From assembly GCA_030749035.1 (NCBI GenBank), contig JASMKV010000006.1, positions 1 to 32,881 of the forward strand: a stretch of DNA of 32,881 nt, written 5' to 3'. Below, one piece after another: positions 22,218-32,881 of this stretch. The notes beneath the pieces are model-generated. The model made no database searches. It was not told the DNA's origin and saw only the letters and a program-made list of their open reading frames with translations. The translations under genes were made by a program, and so were the position numbers. How positions within the stretch are numbered: the stretch's first letter is position 1; every line of letters starts with the position of its first letter. This DNA comes from Myxococcota bacterium. GTDB lineage: Bacteria > Myxococcota > XYA12-FULL-58-9 > JASMKV01.

Positions 22218-25200
22218 ATGACAAAAAAATATTTTATTACTTCTATAATAATCGGGGCTTTACTCAGCGCTTGTCATTCCGGCGGCGTTGACCTTATTGG
22301 CCATGCGCCTACCGTCGACACCGGCGGTCCACATATCACCTGGGACCCTTTTGCTGAGCCACTCCCCGAAATCCCCTTTCCCAACAATGTCGGTACCAGA
22401 CCCGACAGAAAATCGCCCACAGGACTGCGTATCAATGCGAGCATGATTGCGCCCACGGAATTTGAACAAGACCTGCGCACCAAGCTTGCCGGTTTAGATG
22501 GCTTTGGCACATCGGCCCCCATGTGGATACAATTTGAATCGCCCGACCCAACCCAACCCGAGATTGCCAAACTTGATCTTGCCGCCATCGCGGCAGCACA
22601 AACCGGTGACATCAACTTTAATGACGACGTGGTCCTGCTCATCAACGTGAGCCCTGAGAGTCCAACCTATGGTGAAGCTTCGGTGCTTGATTTTGGCAAT
22701 GGCAATTTCCCCATGACCCTCGAAGACACGGATATGTTCGATTATGACCCCCGATCGACATCGAGTAATCTCATTTTTGATGTGGAAGACGAAGACAGCG
22801 ATGCGGATGGTGTCTTTGATGTTTGGGAAGACACCAATCAAAACGGCATCCTCGATGCGGGCGAAGATGTAGACGGTGACGGCAAACTCGATACCCACGA
22901 GGACTCTGACAACGATGGCGTCTTTGATAGAGGCAACATCTGGGGACCAGATGGACACAGCTATCACGACCTCATTACCTTTTATGAGCAGGAAACAAAC
23001 ACCCTGACCTTCCGACCCGTTTATCCTTTAGAAGAGCGCACCACCTATGCGGTGGTGATCACCAAAGACCTCGTCAACGAAGATGGCAAAAGCATCGTCT
23101 CGCCTTTTGACTACGTTCACCATCTCCAACAAAAAGCTGCCCTCAAACCTATCTTCGAAGATGGGCTCTTAACCCCCTATGGCCGAAATGCTGATGATGT
23201 GGCTTTTGCCTGGACCTTCACCACCCAAAGCGTCACCAACGATTTGGTCCGTATCCGTGAAGGCCTACGTGGCTATGGCCCCTTGGCACATTTAAGCTCA
23301 GACTATCCAGCTGAAATTTTAAGTCTGGAAAAGATGAACAGCTCGAGCGGCGTCACCGCTTACCATCTCACCCCCGAAAAACTGGTTGGCGCCATTCGTG
23401 TGCTTTTCGATAATCTTGAAATCGCCAACTACGAAAGCAACCGCATCAATGAATTGGTCGATACCTACGGTGCTGTCGACTATATGGTGGCTGGCGACTA
23501 TCGCTCTGTAGATTTCCTCGATGCGGGCGGTGGTTCCTTTCAAATGGAAGCCGAACAAGGCATCGCCACAACCGAAGAAAGCAGTCTGCGCTTTATTATG
23601 GTTGTTCCGAAGAAAGAATACGCCAAAGATGGCAAACCTTTTCCTGTCGCGCTCTATTGCCACGGACATACCTCTCTTAAAGTCGAAGCCCTGGCCTTTG
23701 CTGGCGTCTTGGCCAAGTTTGGTATTGCCACCTTTGCCATCGACGCGCCGGGCCATGGTATTCCCATCGGTGGTCCTTACGACGTTATCGTTGAAGGCCT
23801 TCTTGCGCAGCTTGCAGGCGATGACCTTATCCCTTTCTACAACGCGCTCAAAAAAGACCGGGCCAAAGATTTAAACAACGACAGCATTTATGAACCGGGC
23901 GGTGACTTTTTTACCAACGACTCTTTCCATACACGCGACATCGTACGCCAAACCAATGTCGACTACGTGCAAGCAGCCCGAACATTACAAGCTTTTGACG
24001 GCGTGACTACATGGTCTATGGATCTTAATGGCGACGGCGTTGCCAACGATATTGCCGGCGATTTTGATGGGGATGGACAAGTCGATTTAGGTGGCACCGA
24101 TGTCGATTATTTTGCCCTTGGAACCTCTATGGGTGGCATCAATTCAACAATTTTAGCCACAATTGAACCCACCATTGTGGCCGCCGCACCGATGGCACCT
24201 GGTGGTTCTCTTTTAGAAGTCGGCATGCGTACCGAGCTCGGTAATGTTGTACACTCGGCGTTGATGCCCATGCTTGGGCCCATGCTTATCGCCGAACCCA
24301 AAGGCAACGCGGCGCAATGCGAAAACGATGCGGCTTGCCTTTATAATTTAAAATGGTTGGTCAACGATGTGTTCACCCACAAACTTCTGGCCTTTGCCAC
24401 CGTTGGTGAAATTGTTGATGGCGAAGTTGTCAACGAATTACGCCCTGGTGATATCATCAAACTCTATAACCTCAAGTCCGGCGAAATGGATCAGGCACAA
24501 GTCCATGCGGACCGGACCTTCAGGATTCATTTGGCTTCGGACAAATACGATCCAGTGCGCGTCACCGTTGAGCGTCCCAATGGCACCATCTACAAAACCA
24601 TCGACACCTTTGAGTACGACGTGAATGGTTTTCAAGGCGACGACTTTTTGAAAGAAACGCCCTTGCTTTCGGTTCAACAAGGCTTTGGCCACCGGCGCAA
24701 CACACCAAGTCTGCGGCGACTCTTAGGTCTTGGGCAAATTATTTTAGAGCCAGGTGATCCCATCAACTACGCACCGCGCTACCGTGACCCGCTGGATATT
24801 ATGCCAGAAGGCAAAGTCCCCACCAACTTGCTCCTGATCCTCACCGCCGGTGATTTTACGGTACCTGTTTCTGCAGGTGTTGCTTTGGGCCGCGCCGCTG
24901 GCATCATTGGCTACAAAGAAATCGACGAGCGTTATGGCAAATCGCAAAACCAACTGCTTATCGATACGCACGTCATGGAATCGGTGGATAAACTGAAATA
25001 TTTTGAAACCAGCGATTGTTATTATGACAACCGCAGCATCAATTTTGATATCGATGATGTCTCCAACGGACTGCACTGGGATGATCCACCTCGCCTTGGC
25101 AAAATTGCCCGCGCACCAGAATGTGACGGCGACAATCCCCCGGCAAGCTGTACAAACGCGTGTCCGGTCTTACCGCCCCTGCGAGCTGTCCTGGAAACGG

Positions 25201-25451
25201 AATCAGGCACCCATGCGGTACGTATCCCCATGCTCAAATCCCGCGGTCAGCATGCACTCGATCTGCCGGACTCCACAGTGGAATTTGACCCAAGCACATT
25301 CACGTTCAATCAAATTGGGCATTATCTGATCAACCAGGGACAAATGCTTTCCGATCATCCCTGTCTGGCGACCAATGACTGCTCGACCTGTGCCGGTGAA
25401 GCCGATTGTCCGCAAATCCCAAAAGCATCCTACCTGGATTCGGGACTCTAG
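22218..25451 (+). CDS. Large alpha/beta-hydrolase lipoprotein with Ca-binding-like Asp loops (1077 aa)
   Basis: The lipobox is LLSAC, with C19 lipidated. The N-terminal third is beta-rich, Ig-like. An Asp-rich stretch at about 190-240 (DSDADGVFD, DTNQNGILD, DVDGDGKLD, DSDNDGVFD) matches thrombospondin-3/EF-loop Ca-binding repeats. A hydrolase core begins near 470 with ALYCHGHTS (oxyanion region) and AIDAPGHG, and has the nucleophile elbow GTSMGG with S637. A second Asp-rich loop (DLNGDGVAND, DFDGDGQVD) sits directly before this elbow. His/Asp partners are not assigned. It is probably a surface esterase or lipase whose loops need calcium. It starts 52 nt after the beta-propeller lipoprotein, in line with co-transcription. 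Confidence 0.85.
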   Translation: MTKKYFITSIIIGALLSACHSGGVDLIGHAPTVDTGGPHITWDPFAEPLPEIPFPNNVGTRPDRKSPTGLRINASMIAPTEFEQDLRTKLAGLDGFGTSAPMWIQFESPDPTQPEIAKLDLAAIAAAQTGDINFNDDVVLLINVSPESPTYGEASVLDFGNGNFPMTLEDTDMFDYDPRSTSSNLIFDVEDEDSDADGVFDVWEDTNQNGILDAGEDVDGDGKLDTHEDSDNDGVFDRGNIWGPDGHSYHDLITFYEQETNTLTFRPVYPLEERTTYAVVITKDLVNEDGKSIVSPFDYVHHLQQKAALKPIFEDGLLTPYGRNADDVAFAWTFTTQSVTNDLVRIREGLRGYGPLAHLSSDYPAEILSLEKMNSSSGVTAYHLTPEKLVGAIRVLFDNLEIANYESNRINELVDTYGAVDYMVAGDYRSVDFLDAGGGSFQMEAEQGIATTEESSLRFIMVVPKKEYAKDGKPFPVALYCHGHTSLKVEALAFAGVLAKFGIATFAIDAPGHGIPIGGPYDVIVEGLLAQLAGDDLIPFYNALKKDRAKDLNNDSIYEPGGDFFTNDSFHTRDIVRQTNVDYVQAARTLQAFDGVTTWSMDLNGDGVANDIAGDFDGDGQVDLGGTDVDYFALGTSMGGINSTILATIEPTIVAAAPMAPGGSLLEVGMRTELGNVVHSALMPMLGPMLIAEPKGNAAQCENDAACLYNLKWLVNDVFTHKLLAFATVGEIVDGEVVNELRPGDIIKLYNLKSGEMDQAQVHADRTFRIHLASDKYDPVRVTVERPNGTIYKTIDTFEYDVNGFQGDDFLKETPLLSVQQGFGHRRNTPSLRRLLGLGQIILEPGDPINYAPRYRDPLDIMPEGKVPTNLLLILTAGDFTVPVSAGVALGRAAGIIGYKEIDERYGKSQNQLLIDTHVMESVDKLKYFETSDCYYDNRSINFDIDDVSNGLHWDDPPRLGKIARAPECDGDNPPASCTNACPVLPPLRAVLETESGTHAVRIPMLKSRGQHALDLPDSTVEFDPSTFTFNQIGHYLINQGQMLSDHPCLATNDCSTCAGEADCPQIPKASYLDSGL

Positions 25452-25574: not shown

Positions 25575-27236
25575 ATGCGTCATGCTTTACTCGTTACGTT
25601 CGCACTTACGCTCATGGCATCGGTCGGATGCAAAAAGCGCGACCCTTTGGGTTGTAAAAGTAACGATGCCTGCCCTTCGGGCTACGTCTGTGGAACCAAC
25701 AGCACCTGCACAAAAATTTGTAGTGCCGATGCGGACTGCCCAACCGGTTTCATCTGTGAATACGAACTGTGTCAGAGCGGTGCGCGCCAAAATCCCCCAC
25801 AAATCGACACGCTCACATCAAATGGCACAAGCACTTGCAGCGGCAGTGCCACGGTCAACGGCGCGGCTTATGATATTAACGAAAATTGTATCGGCACCCA
25901 GCTTCTTGTCAGTGGTGAGGATTTAAGCGGTGGTGACTGGTGGATGATTCATGAAACCGAAAGCGACAACAACATTCATCTGACCCTGAATGAAACAAAC
26001 TCCACCGATGTGTTGGCGGTACTTGATTTCCCCGGCACCTTAAGCGTTCTCGATGGCGGCATCTATCTTTTGAGTGTCTCCAATGAAAACGGCACCGACA
26101 CCCTAAACATGACCGTGCTTAAAGGTGACCCCGGTGAAGATGGCACTGCAGGCGCCACCGGTGCGGCCGGTACGTCATGCAGCGTCGAGCAAAGTGGTGA
26201 AAACGCCACCATCACCTGCGGCGAGACCAGCGCCAGCATCAGTGCCGGGGCAGCTGGAACATCCTGCACTGTGCAGGAAAGTGGTGACGATGCCATCATC
26301 ACTTGTGGCAGCGACGATCCAGTGACCATCAGCGCCGGTGGCGGTAGCGGTGCAAGCGCCACCCTTACCACCTACACAAGCACAGGTGATCCTGCTGCCT
26401 TTGTCGCAAGCTCCGCAAATACAGCAACCGAAGATATAGCACTCGACCGGGCCCATTTCAGTCTGGGCGCAACCAATGCGGGGTCCGCCTATATCAAAAT
26501 TCCCGACAGTGTCATGACCGACTACTGCCAGGATGCGGACGGTTGTAGCTTAACCATGGGTGCCAAAAAATGGCCGAATGAAAGCACAGGCGCCTTGTTT
26601 CCCGCCACCCACAGCGCCTATCCATGTCAGTTTTATATGGACGATGCGCGCGGCTGGATGACCTCGAACGGCTGTAATAAATATATGGAAACGTTCTTTT
26701 TCTATGAAGACCCCGATGACACATTTCATGCCTGTAATACCCATGCAGATTGTGAAGCAAAAGCCAAAGGTCTCTTTTGTACTTATGACATCACCGACAA
26801 CGACACGCACTACTGCGCCTATTCTCTGGCCTGGGCGCCTTTTGGCAGCGGCATGTCCGGCACCGACGGCGACAGCAATGAAAACCACAGCATCCTGCAT
26901 TACTATGGGTCCTGTTATTTAAGCGAAAGTAAGCCCTGCACAAGCACCGCCGACTGTCCTGCAACCTATAACGACAGCTGTGAGAATGGTGTTTGTCAAG
27001 CAGCCCCCGCAAGCTGCGGCGATATCAGCGAATGCCCTGCCGGGTACAACAGCGCTTGTAATGGTGGTCTATGCGAAAACGAAAGCGGGGAAAACTACAA
27101 GGCACAAGCACAGCCCAACGATGCAGACGATGGTTTTTACTTCATCATGGCCCACTCGACATGGTCTGGTAACAGTGCGGACGAGCGCGGCTGGACCGAT
27201 GCAAACCGAACTTGCGAATTGACGATTAAAGACTAG
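25575..27236 (+). CDS. Cys-rich lipoprotein with short collagen-like segment (553 aa)
   Basis: A perfect AAGGAG precedes ATG 25575. The signal peptide ends SVGC (C19 lipidated). Next come two Cys-rich modules of the form CPSGYVCG and CPTGFICE (about 26-70), a beta-sandwich region, and a short Gly-X-Y collagen-like stretch (GDPGEDGTAGATGAAG, about 190-205). Two copies of a Cys repeat follow (GTSCSVEQSG then TITCG; GTSCTVQESG then IITCG). The C-terminal 250 residues contain more CxxxADC and CPAxYNSxC modules, probably disulphide-bonded outside the membrane. No enzyme motif is seen. It is a probable surface adhesin or structural lipoprotein. Confidence 0.85.
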   Translation: MRHALLVTFALTLMASVGCKKRDPLGCKSNDACPSGYVCGTNSTCTKICSADADCPTGFICEYELCQSGARQNPPQIDTLTSNGTSTCSGSATVNGAAYDINENCIGTQLLVSGEDLSGGDWWMIHETESDNNIHLTLNETNSTDVLAVLDFPGTLSVLDGGIYLLSVSNENGTDTLNMTVLKGDPGEDGTAGATGAAGTSCSVEQSGENATITCGETSASISAGAAGTSCTVQESGDDAIITCGSDDPVTISAGGGSGASATLTTYTSTGDPAAFVASSANTATEDIALDRAHFSLGATNAGSAYIKIPDSVMTDYCQDADGCSLTMGAKKWPNESTGALFPATHSAYPCQFYMDDARGWMTSNGCNKYMETFFFYEDPDDTFHACNTHADCEAKAKGLFCTYDITDNDTHYCAYSLAWAPFGSGMSGTDGDSNENHSILHYYGSCYLSESKPCTSTADCPATYNDSCENGVCQAAPASCGDISECPAGYNSACNGGLCENESGENYKAQAQPNDADDGFYFIMAHSTWSGNSADERGWTDANRTCELTIKD

Positions 27237-27246
27237 GTGAACTTTT

Positions 27247-28074
27247 CTGCCAGCTCAAGTCGACAAAGACCTGTGTGACGCCTTAAGCCGAGGCATCCTG
27301 TCACCGGCCGAAATTGGCGCTATTCCTCCTGAAGAACTCGACGCAGGCTTTGCGCTGGTTTGTATTTATCTCGACATGGGCCGACTCGAACAAGCCGAGC
27401 TCTGTCTCGAGGGCCTGATCGCCCTCTATCCCTACGACAAAAGATTTTGGCGCGCCTTAGGGATTATTCAACAAAGACAATATGCCTGGGAAGATGCCAA
27501 TGAAAGTTTGGGCTGCGCCCTGCTTATCGATCCGGAAGACACCTACAGTCGCTGCCTTTTGGGTGAAACGCTCCTCTATCTTGGCGAAAAAGAGGCGGCC
27601 CGGGTTGCTTTGGAAAAAACCAAAAACTCAAACAAACCCTATGTGCAAAAACGTTCGGTCGATTTGCTCAAGATTATTGCGAAACTCGGCGCGATTGAAC
27701 CCATGCCAGGTTCTGCATCCAAAAACACAGAGAATCAGAGCACACAAACCACAACCATTATGCTCGATGCGGACACGGCTTTGCCTTTGCAAGAGAGTCT
27801 TTTTGCCGACGATCCCACCCGCACCCAAGTCAGCACCGATGCACAAGAGGCAACCCAGACACAAATGACGACCAATATATCCAAAGAAACCACACAAGTT
27901 TTTGTTGCCCAAACGGCAGAAAACACAAATACGGCCGATCCCGAGCGCACCAAAACCATCACCTATCATGCCAATCAAGATGTGGCCGCCGCCAATCAAA
28001 GCTTTGAGCATACGGCCATTGTTAAACGACGCTATGGGCAGGCGTTTATTGAGAAGGATGAAGACCATGGCTAG
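27247..28074 (+). CDS. Type III secretion class II chaperone (SycD/LcrH-like) with Thr-rich tail; probable CTG start
   Basis: Residues 8-125 match the TPR chaperones that hold type III translocators. A first helix (ALSRGILSPAEIGAIPPEEL) is followed by TPR pairs around FALVCIYLDMGRLEQAELC, YDKRFWRALGIIQQ and DPEDTYSRCLLGETLLYLG. The first ATG in frame (27376) would cut off this helix. No ATG, GTG or TTG lies between it and the TGA at 27238-27240. CTG 27247 has AGGTGA 6 nt upstream and restores the full domain, giving 275 aa. The tail (about 160-275) is disordered, with about 22 Thr. The next gene overlaps by 8 nt. The chaperone family call is firm; the presence of a type III system is inferred. 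Confidence 0.8.
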   Translation: MPAQVDKDLCDALSRGILSPAEIGAIPPEELDAGFALVCIYLDMGRLEQAELCLEGLIALYPYDKRFWRALGIIQQRQYAWEDANESLGCALLIDPEDTYSRCLLGETLLYLGEKEAARVALEKTKNSNKPYVQKRSVDLLKIIAKLGAIEPMPGSASKNTENQSTQTTTIMLDADTALPLQESLFADDPTRTQVSTDAQEATQTQMTTNISKETTQVFVAQTAENTNTADPERTKTITYHANQDVAAANQSFEHTAIVKRRYGQAFIEKDEDHG

Positions 28075-28750
28075 ATCGGGCACGCCCTTAAACAACCCCA
28101 TGGTCGTCCTCCCTTGGGCCAGACGACAAATTCATGAAGAGGAACTCAAGCTTCAACAAGACCAGGCGGCCGGGCTTCAAAATAAACAAATTGGCCTTGA
28201 TGATGCGTTGGTGCAATCTGACCGTTTTGAAGTACGTGCGCGCCAACAGAAAAATAAGAACTTACCCGAGGCACTGGCACAGTGGCATCTGCCCTATTCA
28301 CCGCCAGCCCACATCCCCGAAGAAGATCAGCCTCTTTTAAATGAAGACAGGCTTATTGGATTGGCCATTGTCCTGGATATCTTAACGACCCAAACCGCAG
28401 CCTTAAAAGAAAACCCACTCATCCTCACGCAATTACAAAGTACGCTTTCGGAAAGTGGCGAGTTGGGCGGCATTGATGCGGCTGGCCGCCAGAGGCTTAT
28501 CGATTTTGCCAAGGGCCCCGCTGGCCGCGCAAGACACCTTTTGGCCAAACGTTTTTTTGATGCGGCCCAGGAAGAACTCCAACCGGATGCTGAAGAAGCG
28601 GCCATCCATATCATCCCGGCACACCTGCAATGCACGCCACAAAGCGTCGCCACGAGCTTAAAAACACTCCAAACCTTTGCACAGATTTTACGCGATGAGG
28701 TCAAACTTCGGCTCGGTCAGCCCGAGCCGATGAACGAATATCAAGCTTAA
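28067..28750 (+). CDS. Hypothetical protein coupled to the SycD-like chaperone (227 aa)
   Basis: ATG 28067 overlaps the chaperone stop (ATGGCTAG) and has AAGG about 9 nt upstream. A longer reading from 27902 lies inside the chaperone gene and is rejected. The protein is hydrophilic. It has a charged helix at about 22-65 (EEELKLQQDQAAGLQNKQ), a Pro-rich hinge (PYSPPAHIPEEDQP) and a helical C-terminal half. It has no signal peptide, membrane segment or recognised family. The tight coupling suggests it works with the chaperone, as a secreted substrate, co-chaperone or cytosolic secretion component. The stop is 3 nt from the convergent giant gene. Confidence 0.75.
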   Translation: MARSGTPLNNPMVVLPWARRQIHEEELKLQQDQAAGLQNKQIGLDDALVQSDRFEVRARQQKNKNLPEALAQWHLPYSPPAHIPEEDQPLLNEDRLIGLAIVLDILTTQTAALKENPLILTQLQSTLSESGELGGIDAAGRQRLIDFAKGPAGRARHLLAKRFFDAAQEELQPDAEEAAIHIIPAHLQCTPQSVATSLKTLQTFAQILRDEVKLRLGQPEPMNEYQA

Positions 28751-28753
28751 AGC

Positions 28754-31700
28754 TTAAATACCAAATTTCTTGATATGGGCAGCAATTTGCTCTTCTGTAT
28801 TACTGACACCCCAATTGAAGAGGCCTCCGGCAAGAAGATTCTCATGCAAGGCTTTACGCGCCCCACGACTCAAATTCTTGAGACAGGGATGGAAAGCGCC
28901 GCCCGGGGTCTTGGCGAATTCACGGGCAAAACCATCGCGATACTCCCACAAAATCCTGCTCTCCTTATAAAGGGTTTCGATAATCTTCGAAGCGGTTTGC
29001 GGATTTTCATTCGCAAGCGCCTGTAAAAGTTCAATCTGATGCGCGCTGTTGCCAGCGTTGTAATACCTGCCCATCGCTTTGGCTAAATCATCGACATAAC
29101 CGCTGTTGGGCCCGATCTCTGCCAGGCGCTCTGCTGCTTTTGCCGTGTCCATGCTGCCTAAGACAAAATACAAATCGTCATACATGAGCATGGCGAGGTC
29201 TTTTTTCATCGCTGTGGCTTCATGCAAGGCCACGTGTGCAGCTTTATCACTGTTGGCTGGGTACTCAACCATATTACCTGTTGTACGCGAGCGAAGCATA
29301 TGGTTCGCCAGGGATGTATCCAGAATATCCAAGGACGCCACGGGTAAGGTCCCCAAAGGCACATTTTGGTCGACAAGCTCTCGCGCCAAATTTTGAATAA
29401 ATTCTTTATCATCCATATTGGCTTCGACAATTTTCTTTGTCAGCAACTCATCGCGAGCGCTGCCTTCATAACCAGCGCTGACTTTCAAAAATTGTGCAAT
29501 CTTAGCAGGGTTTTTGCCCAAGCTATTCACCAAAGCTTGCATACCAATACCGTAAAAGTCTTTCTTCAAGTCTGCAGACTTCGCTTGTGAAGCATCAAAG
29601 CCTTTAAGTTGCTCTAACGCCGAAAGTAAATCCGTCACGCCAACCTTATCGGCCTCAACGCCGCTTTCAATCTTACCGGAACGAATTTGCGCATTCACTT
29701 GTCCCACCAAGGTGGTATTGGCTGCAACCTGCTTGGCAAGATCCAAATCGGTTTGCAGTGCGCGATGGGCTTCCATCGTTTGCGGACCAACCGCCCACTT
29801 CGATTCAGCTCCGGATTCAGGTGCGCTTAAATAACCGTCATTGGTTAAAATCGCCTTATAATCGTTTCCGAATTTGCGAAAACCGGCTTGATCTTTAGGC
29901 ATGGCACAACCCACAACCTCGACCATCGTTTGTGCTGTACGCGCTGCTTGTGGCAACGAATCTAAAACAGCCAACATGCCTTCAGCCCGCTGCTCTTTCC
30001 ACAGAGGTCCAAAAAGGTCCAACGCGTTCTCTGTCGCCGCGCTACACATGCTGTAGCTTGCTGTACCGACCGCTTGCTCCGGTAAACCAAAAGTCACCAA
30101 TGCACGCTGGGTATCCTCAAGCTTCACCTTCACATTGACAGTCGCAAAGTGATTATCCAAAACGCCCAAAACGGCTTCATTATCCATAGAGGCAATATCG
30201 CGAACGTTATCGCCAATAAGGAAATTCAAACCAGCACGCAGGTGTTCATTCACCCACTCCTCCGAAGCCCCTTGAAGGCTCTGATGGGCAAGAAGCTTGG
30301 TCATGGGGACATCTGTCTCAACCACAGGCGGCGTGTTAACCACCTCAGGCTCAGGCGTATTCGTGACAGTCTCGACACTTGGTGTGATCGGGGTTGAAAC
30401 AACCTCTTCGTCACGACCATCACCCGTAATGATGGTTCCTGAAACATCAGCGCCTCCGCTGTTGCTTACCGGCGGCTGAACCGTTGTGTTCGATGTATCG
30501 CTTTCGGTATTGACCACTGGCACATCAGGTGTGTCATCAATAACCACCTCTTCAGCTCTTGTCGTAATGAGCCCAATCACCGCTTCTGGATTGTCAGGAG
30601 GCACGCGTGTGCCCACATCCAAGCCAGCACGACGTCCGGCTGCCAAAAGCGCAGGCCATTCACCTTCACTTGGTAAAGTGCCATTGCGACGATGCGCTTC
30701 TAATTCAAGACGCGCAAGTCCCATAATGGTGGGTAGGGTCACTGTCGTGGTGACCAACGACTTGGCCAGGCCTAAATTAATCACACTTGGCATCATCGCC
30801 GGTGTGGTTAAGGTGCCCGTATCCATCGCATTGAATAAAGTTGGGATATTAAAATCACAACCGATCGTATGAATGGTCATGGGCTCTGGCACAACCACGG
30901 CCTCTGTCGCCGAACCAACAACATTAATCGGGGGAGTCACCGGAGGTGGAGGTGGCATTGTGCCGGTTGTTCCACTCAATCCGCCACCAATAAATCCGCC
31001 TGGAGGAGGAGGAGGCGTCACGTCGCCACCTGGATTGGTGCCAATGCCATCACCACCTGGTGGTGGTGGTGGTGGTGTGACAGGATCGGTTGTACCGATG
31101 CCATCACCACCGGGTGTCGGTGGTAACTCAGGTATGGGATCAATCGTTCCAGGGCCAGTATCACCTGGTGTTGGTGGCAACTCAGGAATAGGATCAATCG
31201 TTCCAGGGCCGGTGTCACCTGGCTCTGGTGGAAGTTCTGGGATAGGATCGACTGTTCCCGGACCGTCTTCAACTGGGTCAACGATCGTATCGTCCGTAGG
31301 TTGTTCAACATTCGGATTTTCTTTATTGAGCAAATCCTCAATACCGCTCATGATCAACGAGGTCAGCGCACCAACCGTAAAACCGATTCCCGCGTCCCTA
31401 AATGCCCCATCGACAAGCGTCTTGGTGCCATCATAAATTCCATCTTCCCAAGTACTCAGTTCTGTCGCACGGTACACGCCGCCAACCCCAACCGCAGTTC
31501 TGGCGGTTGCCACACCATCATAAAGCGCTTTCGTCCAAATCGAGGCATCCGGCGAAAGCAGTGCCAGGTTATTGACCTGAAAGTGCACCATCAGTCCTGC
31601 AGCTCCACCGCGAACAGCATCCTTAAGCAACTTCACCGGACGTCTTTCACCTAAAATGAAATCCGTTCCCGTTTTTGCACCGGCACCGACCGCCGCAAAA

Positions 31701-32881
31701 AGCCAAGGTGACGCTTGTGGCGCCGCAATAATCGTCCCGGCAATCGCCAGGGACATGGCCACGTTCGTCGCCATTTCCACACGGGCTTCTTTAAGCTGGT
31801 CGTACTGTGAAACGCGATGCAATAAATCTGCATACTGCGTGCGAATCGAATTGAGATCCGCTTCAGTGATTTGCTGACCACTGGCTTCCTTCATAGCCAC
31901 ATTACGTACCGCTTCACCCACACGCAGGGCCGTATCTTCAAGGCCTGCACCATGGGGTCCAAAGAAATCCATGAGCATTTCATTGAGCACGTTGCCTCTG
32001 GAGTTCGCCACCATGTCACGAATATCCTGAGTCAATTGCGCCTCAGAAACCTTCATCGCTGTCGCAAAATGTGCCGAGCCGCCGGCCGCATCAACCATCG
32101 CCCGAAGGTTTTCTATGGCCGCTGCATTTTGAATGCCGGCAGTGGCGTAGTCCGTATCGCCAAAATTATCTGAGAGCCACTGTGCTGGATCACCAAAATG
32201 GGTTGCAATCCACTCGTTGACCGCCGGATCACTTGACGTGTTGAGATAAGCGTTGATTTCCATCGACAACATATCCACATCCTGTGGCATGATTTGCGCC
32301 AATTGCGCCGCGTGCCTTACGCCCACACCTTCCAAGCCATTAAGATCATCAAGTAATGGGTTCCTGCCATTTTCAACATCGAACACACGACCGGTCATCC
32401 GCGCGTATTCGGTCATGGCCACGACTTTTTCCAGGGGTGATGCACCAGCCAGGACGGAGATAATGGTATCGCCATCGGTTTTACCAAAGATACCAAAGGC
32501 CCCCGGCTCATTCATCGCGTACACAAGCCGCTCAGCTGACGTTAAGCTGGCGTTCTCTAAGAGCGCTAAAGCGCGTTGCTGTACTTTTGAACCATCGGCA
32601 ATCTCCAACTTCGCATCACCACCATAGAGCTTACTTAAAAGGTCCTTCGACAAGGCTTCTTGATCGCCATTGCCATAACGCTGGGCGTAAGCCGCGCGCA
32701 CCTCACCAAGATACACCTGGCGTTGCTCTAAAGTCATGTCCGGCTGATCGAGAACCTCGTAAACAACCTCTTCTTTGGTCCCCTTCAGTCCCAGGAAGCC
32801 ACCATCTAACGCATTACTCAAACGAATCGCCGCTGCTTCAGGAGAATTGAAACCTTTGCCTTCCATGGTGATACGCGCCAA
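28754..32881 (-). CDS. Giant protein with hydrophobic patch and Pro-rich repeat spacer (5' end outside window)
   Basis: The frame is open to the window edge. A TTG at the edge could be read as a start, but the gene more likely continues. 1375 residues are visible. The first 520 are mostly helical, with a hydrophobic region at about 365-405 (VAMSLAIAGTIIAAP, WLFAAVGAGA) and a second at about 420-435. Residues 525-670 form a Pro/Gly/Asp-rich spacer with 18-residue repeats. The last 500 residues are again helical. No signal peptide is visible and no family is recognised. Convergence with a type III chaperone pair and the hydrophobic patch suggest a large secreted or translocator-like protein; this is inference. 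Confidence 0.8.
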   Translation of the reverse strand: MARITMEGKGFNSPEAAAIRLSNALDGGFLGLKGTKEEVVYEVLDQPDMTLEQRQVYLGEVRAAYAQRYGNGDQEALSKDLLSKLYGGDAKLEIADGSKVQQRALALLENASLTSAERLVYAMNEPGAFGIFGKTDGDTIISVLAGASPLEKVVAMTEYARMTGRVFDVENGRNPLLDDLNGLEGVGVRHAAQLAQIMPQDVDMLSMEINAYLNTSSDPAVNEWIATHFGDPAQWLSDNFGDTDYATAGIQNAAAIENLRAMVDAAGGSAHFATAMKVSEAQLTQDIRDMVANSRGNVLNEMLMDFFGPHGAGLEDTALRVGEAVRNVAMKEASGQQITEADLNSIRTQYADLLHRVSQYDQLKEARVEMATNVAMSLAIAGTIIAAPQASPWLFAAVGAGAKTGTDFILGERRPVKLLKDAVRGGAAGLMVHFQVNNLALLSPDASIWTKALYDGVATARTAVGVGGVYRATELSTWEDGIYDGTKTLVDGAFRDAGIGFTVGALTSLIMSGIEDLLNKENPNVEQPTDDTIVDPVEDGPGTVDPIPELPPEPGDTGPGTIDPIPELPPTPGDTGPGTIDPIPELPPTPGGDGIGTTDPVTPPPPPPGGDGIGTNPGGDVTPPPPPGGFIGGGLSGTTGTMPPPPPVTPPINVVGSATEAVVVPEPMTIHTIGCDFNIPTLFNAMDTGTLTTPAMMPSVINLGLAKSLVTTTVTLPTIMGLARLELEAHRRNGTLPSEGEWPALLAAGRRAGLDVGTRVPPDNPEAVIGLITTRAEEVVIDDTPDVPVVNTESDTSNTTVQPPVSNSGGADVSGTIITGDGRDEEVVSTPITPSVETVTNTPEPEVVNTPPVVETDVPMTKLLAHQSLQGASEEWVNEHLRAGLNFLIGDNVRDIASMDNEAVLGVLDNHFATVNVKVKLEDTQRALVTFGLPEQAVGTASYSMCSAATENALDLFGPLWKEQRAEGMLAVLDSLPQAARTAQTMVEVVGCAMPKDQAGFRKFGNDYKAILTNDGYLSAPESGAESKWAVGPQTMEAHRALQTDLDLAKQVAANTTLVGQVNAQIRSGKIESGVEADKVGVTDLLSALEQLKGFDASQAKSADLKKDFYGIGMQALVNSLGKNPAKIAQFLKVSAGYEGSARDELLTKKIVEANMDDKEFIQNLARELVDQNVPLGTLPVASLDILDTSLANHMLRSRTTGNMVEYPANSDKAAHVALHEATAMKKDLAMLMYDDLYFVLGSMDTAKAAERLAEIGPNSGYVDDLAKAMGRYYNAGNSAHQIELLQALANENPQTASKIIETLYKESRILWEYRDGFAREFAKTPGGAFHPCLKNLSRGARKALHENLLAGGLFNWGVSNTEEQIAAHIKKFGI
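31010..31264 (-). repeat. 54-bp tandem repeat coding for an 18-residue Pro-rich unit
   Basis: Three well-conserved 54-bp units (31264 down to 31103) encode GPGT(V/I)DPIPELPP(E/T)PGDT. Two decayed units, GIGTTDPVTPPPPPPGGD and GIGTNPGGDVTPPPPPGG, extend to about 31010. They lie in frame inside the giant protein gene and probably form an extended, stiff linker. Copy number could vary between strains. Confidence 0.85.

What the first reader, a model, noticed from the sequence alone, without database searches (positions are those of the whole stretch)
27247..32881. Possible undescribed secretion module: SycD-like chaperone, coupled unknown protein and a giant convergent protein
Class II chaperones normally sit beside the hydrophobic translocators they bind. 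Here the neighbours are a 227-aa unknown protein (8-nt overlap) and a protein over 1375 aa with a hydrophobic patch and no visible signal peptide. Neither resembles known translocators. This may be a new type III substrate set or a reuse of the chaperone outside type III secretion.
Basis: inference. Interest (0 to 1): 0.6.

Follow-up and report, generated by a model that had tools for sequence, protein, structure and literature searches.

The report
Annexin giant beside type III chaperone
In one order of uncultured Myxococcota that carries a type III secretion machine, a chaperone of the kind that escorts that machine's pore proteins is encoded with a small unknown protein and, in most species, back to back with a very large annexin-repeat protein; this makes the large protein a good but untested candidate for export by the machine.

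Summary
The three ORFs are real. The chaperone reads from a CTG at 27247 and is SycD-like: best natural match over its length in the PDB is SycD, 1e-9, but it scores 36 bits against a 105-bit NCBIfam cut-off. The 227-aa gene overlaps it by 8 nt. The giant converges on that gene with a 3-nt gap. The window is a whole contig, so the giant is cut off; about 584 further N-terminal residues lie on contig C339. The genome does encode a non-flagellar type III system (SctN, SctR and SctV over cut-off; SctU just under). The chaperone/227-aa pair occurs in 7 of 8 genomes of this order and in none of the other 187 genomes searched in the phylum. The giant occurs in 5 of those 7, always converging on the pair. 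New point: the giant's N-terminal part carries annexin repeats (annexin VI, 2e-14), followed by a conserved moderately hydrophobic segment, a Pro-rich linker and a novel helical C-terminus. Best reading: a lineage-specific type III chaperone module whose likely client is the giant. No sequence test shows secretion or binding, and the pair persists without the giant in two genomes, so the 227-aa protein may be the main client. AlphaFold models were unusable.

The parts
27247..28074 (+). SycD/LcrH-like TPR chaperone (275 aa from CTG), about 150 residues of TPR domain followed by a Thr/Gln-rich tail ending in a TAIVKRR motif
   Evidence: TIGR02552 4.4e-9 (36.2 bits, cut-off 104.8), Pfam TPR over cut-off; family profile finds SycD 1.2e-9, PcrH, AcrH as best natural full-domain matches in the PDB; tail motif TA(I/V)xxRR recurs in relatives
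27234..27249 (+). AGGTGA Shine-Dalgarno-like sequence and CTG start codon of the chaperone gene
   Evidence: sequence TAGGTGAACTTTTCTG, in-frame TGA at 27238 rules out an earlier start; alignment with the starts of relatives
28067..28750 (+). 227-aa protein of unknown family, translationally coupled to the chaperone (8-nt overlap); N-terminal VVLPWA motif, helical C-terminal half
   Evidence: no Pfam/NCBIfam hit; family in 7 of 8 genomes of the order and 0 of 187 others in the phylum; alignments
28754..32881 (-). C-terminal 1375 residues of the giant protein, convergent; cut by the contig end
   Evidence: homologs in G002, G004, G006, G007
31262..32881 (-). conserved central region of the giant (window residues 1-540): helical repeats (annexin-like by eye only) and hydrophobic segment
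   Evidence: alignments A1/A5, 25-46% identity; profile finds it only in the five giant-bearing genomes, with one shorter paralog and one weak match in G002
31724..31780 (-). conserved hydrophobic segment VEMATNVAMSLAIAGTIIA (window residues 368-386)
   Evidence: Kyte-Doolittle mean 1.5-1.8 at the same place in relatives
30650..31262 (-). Pro/Gly/Thr-rich linker of the giant (approximate limits)
   Evidence: sequence; composition kept, sequence not, in relatives
28757..30304 (-). C-terminal helical domain of the giant, no known family; its first 190 residues also end an 837-aa protein on own contig C130
   Evidence: alignment A8, blastp to C130 4e-8

Best explanation
[quoted passage not shown] The TPR protein is a diverged class II (SycD-type) chaperone with a long disordered tail. 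It is made in a translationally coupled pair with the 227-aa protein, which most likely acts with it, either as a small client whose extended N-terminal VVLPWA stretch sits in the TPR groove, or as a co-chaperone. The back-to-back giant is the probable large client: it lacks a signal peptide, has a membrane-active architecture (annexin repeats, a moderately hydrophobic helical segment, a flexible linker, a large C-terminal domain), and in this lineage is found only beside the pair. In this picture the chaperone keeps the hydrophobic giant soluble and hands it to SctV for export, and the giant then acts at or across a target membrane. Shown: the genes, the type III system, the conserved arrangement, the annexin homology. 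Inferred: chaperone-client binding, export, and the role at a target membrane.
For: Type III genes in the same genome: SctN 607 bits (cut-off 605), SctR 224 (209), SctV 843 (692), SctU 354 (358), SctJ, and separate flagellar genes on C198. SycD-type TPR by family profile. Trio in G000, G002, G004, G006 and G007 (four genera), with the giant always converging on the 227-aa gene (3-49 nt apart) although the giants have diverged to 25-46% identity. The giant is found in no searched genome that lacks the pair. Coupled start/stop: 4- or 8-nt overlap in five genomes, 2-3 nt gap in two. Annexin: PF00191 3.8e-7 over gathering cut-off in G004, annexin VI 2.4e-14 over two repeats with the family profile. 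No N-terminal hydrophobic segment and a conserved internal hydrophobic one.
Against: The chaperone misses the LcrH_SycD cut-off, and single-sequence search ranks designed TPR proteins and PEX5 above SycD. The pair persists without any detectable giant in G001 and G005. The giant is on the opposite strand, so is not co-transcribed with the chaperone. The class II binding motif (PxLxxP type) is no more frequent than chance in the giant or the 227-aa proteins, though the SseC-like protein lacks it too. The trio is not next to the sct operons. Other annexin-repeat proteins in the phylum have no SycD-type neighbour.
Confidence: 0.5

Rival explanations
1. The functional unit is only the chaperone plus the 227-aa protein, a substrate:chaperone pair working like SctX:SctY, where a small substrate and its TPR chaperone dock on SctV together. 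The giant is a linked but separate gene.
For: The pair is kept in 7 of 8 genomes, the giant in 5; only the pair is translationally coupled; the chaperone also hits the SctY model at 1e-6; YscX:YscY bound to YscV is a documented precedent (abstract of PMC9163089, listed).
Against: A SctY-like candidate already lies in the sct operon (C414), although that one too scores slightly better as LcrH_SycD than as SctY; the giant is always exactly beside the pair where it occurs, which a neutral linkage would hardly keep at this divergence.
Confidence: 0.25
2. A SycD-like TPR protein reused as an adaptor outside type III secretion, for instance an assembly factor for a cell-surface or intracellular annexin scaffold.
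For: Sub-threshold chaperone score; long disordered tail that classic class II chaperones lack (own knowledge); bacterial annexins are otherwise described without secretion-system links (PMC3894181).
Against: All genomes with the pair have type III genes; several other SycD-type chaperones in the genome sit by type III genes or secreted-protein-like genes.
Confidence: 0.15
3. Inherited synteny with no functional link among the three genes.
For: The order is small (8 genomes); a ParA-like ATPase gene also stays beside the pair or the giant in four of them.
Against: Upstream neighbours of the chaperone gene differ among the genomes while the trio order is kept.
Confidence: 0.1

Closest known systems
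Class II type III chaperones (SycD/LcrH, PcrH, IpgC, AcrH)
   Same: TPR domain of about 150 residues that aligns along the SycD structure; coupled to a neighbouring gene; type III system in the genome
   Different: Score below the family cut-off; 100-250-residue Thr/Gln-rich tail with repeated TAxxxRR motifs; neighbours are not YopB/YopD-type translocators
Bacterial annexin-repeat proteins (PMC3894181)
   Same: Large, multi-domain, sometimes with hydrophobic segments; known from Myxococcales; some carry toxin domains
   Different: No secretion-system neighbour is described there; this giant has no recognised toxin domain and sits by a type III-type chaperone
YscX:YscY (SctX:SctY) substrate-chaperone pair
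   Same: Small protein with a TPR chaperone next to it
   Different: No match of the 227-aa protein to any Pfam or NCBIfam model; it is longer and not in the sct operon
Myxobacterial needle-less type III system (T3SS*) of Cystobacterineae (PMC3459982, PMC10849154)
   Same: Same phylum, non-flagellar type III export genes
   Different: Here a tandem SycD chaperone, a weak SseC-like protein and needle-like C-terminal domains are also present; the described T3SS* lacks needle and translocon

Membership tests
SycD/LcrH class II chaperone | Score over curated LcrH_SycD cut-off (TIGR02552, 104.8 bits) | tested here: not met
   36.2 bits, E 4.4e-9
SycD/LcrH class II chaperone | Three-TPR domain aligning over SycD | tested here: met
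   Family profile positions 23-147 on SycD 9-138, 1.2e-9; PcrH and AcrH next
SycD/LcrH class II chaperone | Non-flagellar type III system in the genome | tested here: met
SycD/LcrH class II chaperone | Gene beside hydrophobic translocator genes | tested here: not met
   Neighbours hit no translocator model
SycD/LcrH class II chaperone | Binds client through a PxLxxP-type peptide | tested here: inconclusive
   Motif at chance frequency in the candidates, but also absent from the SseC-like protein; binding not testable here
Annexin (PF00191) | Annexin repeats over gathering cut-off | tested here: met
   G004 giant 30.5 bits (cut-off 25), G007 26.0 bits, profile to annexin VI 2.4e-14; own-genome piece alone only 14.2 bits
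Annexin (PF00191) | Type II calcium loop GxGTDE | tested here: inconclusive
   GFGTDE in G007, GWGNDK in G004, degenerate in the window's own genome (by eye)
Type III translocator (SseC/YopB) | Match to SseC/YopB/YopD models | tested here: not met
Type III substrate | sct-dependent export | not testable with these tools
   no N-terminal hydrophobic segment is only compatible with it

The most novel reading that the evidence does not exclude
A 1,600-2,000-residue annexin-repeat protein is delivered by a needle-type type III system in Myxococcota with a dedicated class II-like chaperone and a new co-factor, acting as a membrane-binding injected or pore-lining protein against prey or host cells.
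Probability: 0.3. Interest if true: 0.75.

Novelty: new variant of a known kind. Interest (0 to 1): 0.5.

Why it matters
Bacterial annexins have been catalogued without a known route out of the cell or a function. A conserved link to a type III chaperone would give both, and would make the role of type III secretion in free-living Myxococcota testable; the described myxobacterial system lacks needle and translocon. It also adds an orphan chaperone/co-factor family restricted to one order.

Tried and rejected
AlphaFold2 of the giant's central region (mean pLDDT 47) and of the 227-aa protein (39) gave no usable fold, so no fold search was run. A PDB profile match of the central region to protein A was set aside as a short single-helix, fusion-tag match. 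The 227-aa profile hits to coronavirus spike coiled coils were set aside as coiled-coil noise. I first took the absence of SctV in G003 as a negative control for co-occurrence; this was wrong, because G003 carries the rest of the sct operon, so co-occurrence with type III is consistent but not discriminating (type III genes are in 8 of 8 genomes). Profile comparison did not show that the C-terminal domain or the window-side repeats are further annexin repeats; the latter are annexin-like by eye only. The two pieces of the giant on contigs C6 and C339 were analysed apart and not joined.

Full report
Check of the observation. The window is an entire contig of a 527-contig, 97.7% complete genome. 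The chaperone frame is open from the stop at 27238; the only plausible start near the position where relatives start is a CTG at 27247, seven bases after AGGTG. The 227-aa ORF starts inside the chaperone's last codons (ATGGCTAG). The giant converges with a 3-nt gap and runs off the contig. C339:1-141 repeats its first 47 residues exactly and continues the frame to an ATG, giving about 1,960 residues over the two contigs. The two pieces were studied separately.

Is there a type III system? Yes. SctV on C84 scores 843 bits (cut-off 692), SctN 607 (605), SctR 224 (209), SctU 354 (358), with SctJ below cut-off on C414 and FliO/SctS/SctT-like genes beside SctR; a separate flagellar set is on C198. 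Several SycD-type chaperones exist: two next to SctU on C113, one on C57, a tandem one on C200 that is over the family cut-off (131 bits) and lies beside a weakly SseC-like 456-aa protein. The C200 locus looks more like an ordinary translocon locus than the window's trio does.

What the chaperone is. Its family profile finds SycD (1.2e-9), PcrH and AcrH as the best natural PDB matches over the whole TPR domain, with designed TPR proteins also high. Alone it hits TIGR02552 at 4.4e-9, far below the cut-off. It works like a class II chaperone on sequence grounds but is not a certified member. Its Thr/Gln-rich tail with TAxxxRR motifs is conserved in character and is not a feature of classic class II chaperones (own knowledge).

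Conservation. The 227-aa family is present in 7 of 8 genomes of the order (6 genera) and in none of the other 187 genomes searched in the phylum. It is coupled to the chaperone in all seven: 8-nt overlap here, 4 nt in G002, G005, G006 and G007, and 2-3 nt gaps in G001 and G004. The giant's central region is present in five (G000, G002, G004, G006, G007) and in each the C-terminal end of the giant converges on the 227-aa gene at 3-49 nt. In G002 and G007, as in the window's genome, the giant is split between contigs, so its continuity there is inferred, and the C-terminal piece in G002 is only weakly similar. G001 and G005 keep the pair with no detectable giant. The named relatives are groundwater or other environmental Deltaproteobacteria/Myxococcota MAGs: JACRCV010000118, JAKLEG010000182, MGST01000253, JALHOP010000020. 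Type III genes are in all eight genomes including G003, which lacks the pair, so presence of the system does not discriminate.

What the giant is. The N-terminal part (on C339) carries at least two annexin repeats: PF00191 is over gathering cut-off in G004 and G007, and the family profile of that stretch finds annexin VI at 2.4e-14 and many annexins after it. The calcium loop is intact in G007 (GFGTDE) and degenerate in the window's genome. The window part holds further helical repeats that look annexin-like by eye but are not confirmed by profiles, a conserved moderately hydrophobic segment, a Pro-rich linker, and a C-terminal domain of unknown family that is shared in part with an 837-aa protein on C130. 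There is no N-terminal hydrophobic segment in the relatives whose N-terminus is held. Structure prediction failed.

Mechanism. The most economical account is a chaperone unit dedicated to a lineage-specific type III cargo. The pair is the constant element, so the 227-aa protein is either the obligatory partner or a small client; its conserved VVLPWA stretch near the N-terminus would suit a TPR groove (inferred; the G002 member lacks it). Where the giant exists it is always next to the pair and has features that need a chaperone before export, namely size, a hydrophobic segment and no signal peptide. Published bacterial annexins include fusions to toxin domains and were proposed to aid delivery at membranes, without a known export route (PMC3894181). 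In the same phylum a needle-less type III system of Myxococcus xanthus is needed for prey lysis (PMC10849154). An annexin-based type III cargo would fit both but is not shown.

Novelty. I found no report linking annexin repeats in bacteria to a type III chaperone in the held library; that library lacks most subscription papers. I rate it a new variant of a known kind.

Noticed in passing
L010:6847-8157 (G000 C113), L057:11987-13267 (C339), L009:8407-9456 (C57): Three larger proteins share a C-terminal stretch ending in an IRN/IRK-like sequence; the C113 one, inside the sct locus, weakly matches the type III needle subunit family (PF09392, 1.2e-4, below cut-off). This suggests needle-like domains at the end of larger proteins.
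   Followed up: partly
L063:2-982 and 1067-2437 (G000 C200): Tandem (double) SycD chaperone over the family cut-off beside a 456-aa weakly SseC-like protein and two further unknown proteins (312 and 771 aa): probable translocon locus in Myxococcota, where the described type III system lacks one.
   Followed up: partly
L057:2258-3163, L049:11900-12919, L050:4625-5542, L053:5249-6241: A ParA/MinD-like ATPase gene (53-70% identical) sits beside the giant or the chaperone pair in four genomes.
   Followed up: no
L101 (G003 C114): A complete-looking sct operon in a genome rated 100% complete in which no SctV or FlhA homolog was found.
   Followed up: partly
G001:C339, C204, C51; G008:C172; G022:C277, C124; G029:C271, C629: Stand-alone annexin-repeat proteins of about 470-1190 aa (open frames) elsewhere in the phylum; no SycD-type neighbour was found in the stretches read.
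   Followed up: partly
window 22218-25451: 1077-aa lipoprotein-like protein with an alpha/beta-hydrolase region resembling VolA/Pla-1 phospholipases (TIGR03502, 8e-16, below cut-off).
   Followed up: no
window 25575-27236: 553-aa Cys-rich lipoprotein-like protein ending 10 nt before the chaperone's CTG start; a similar-looking Cys-rich protein precedes the chaperone gene in G002.
   Followed up: no
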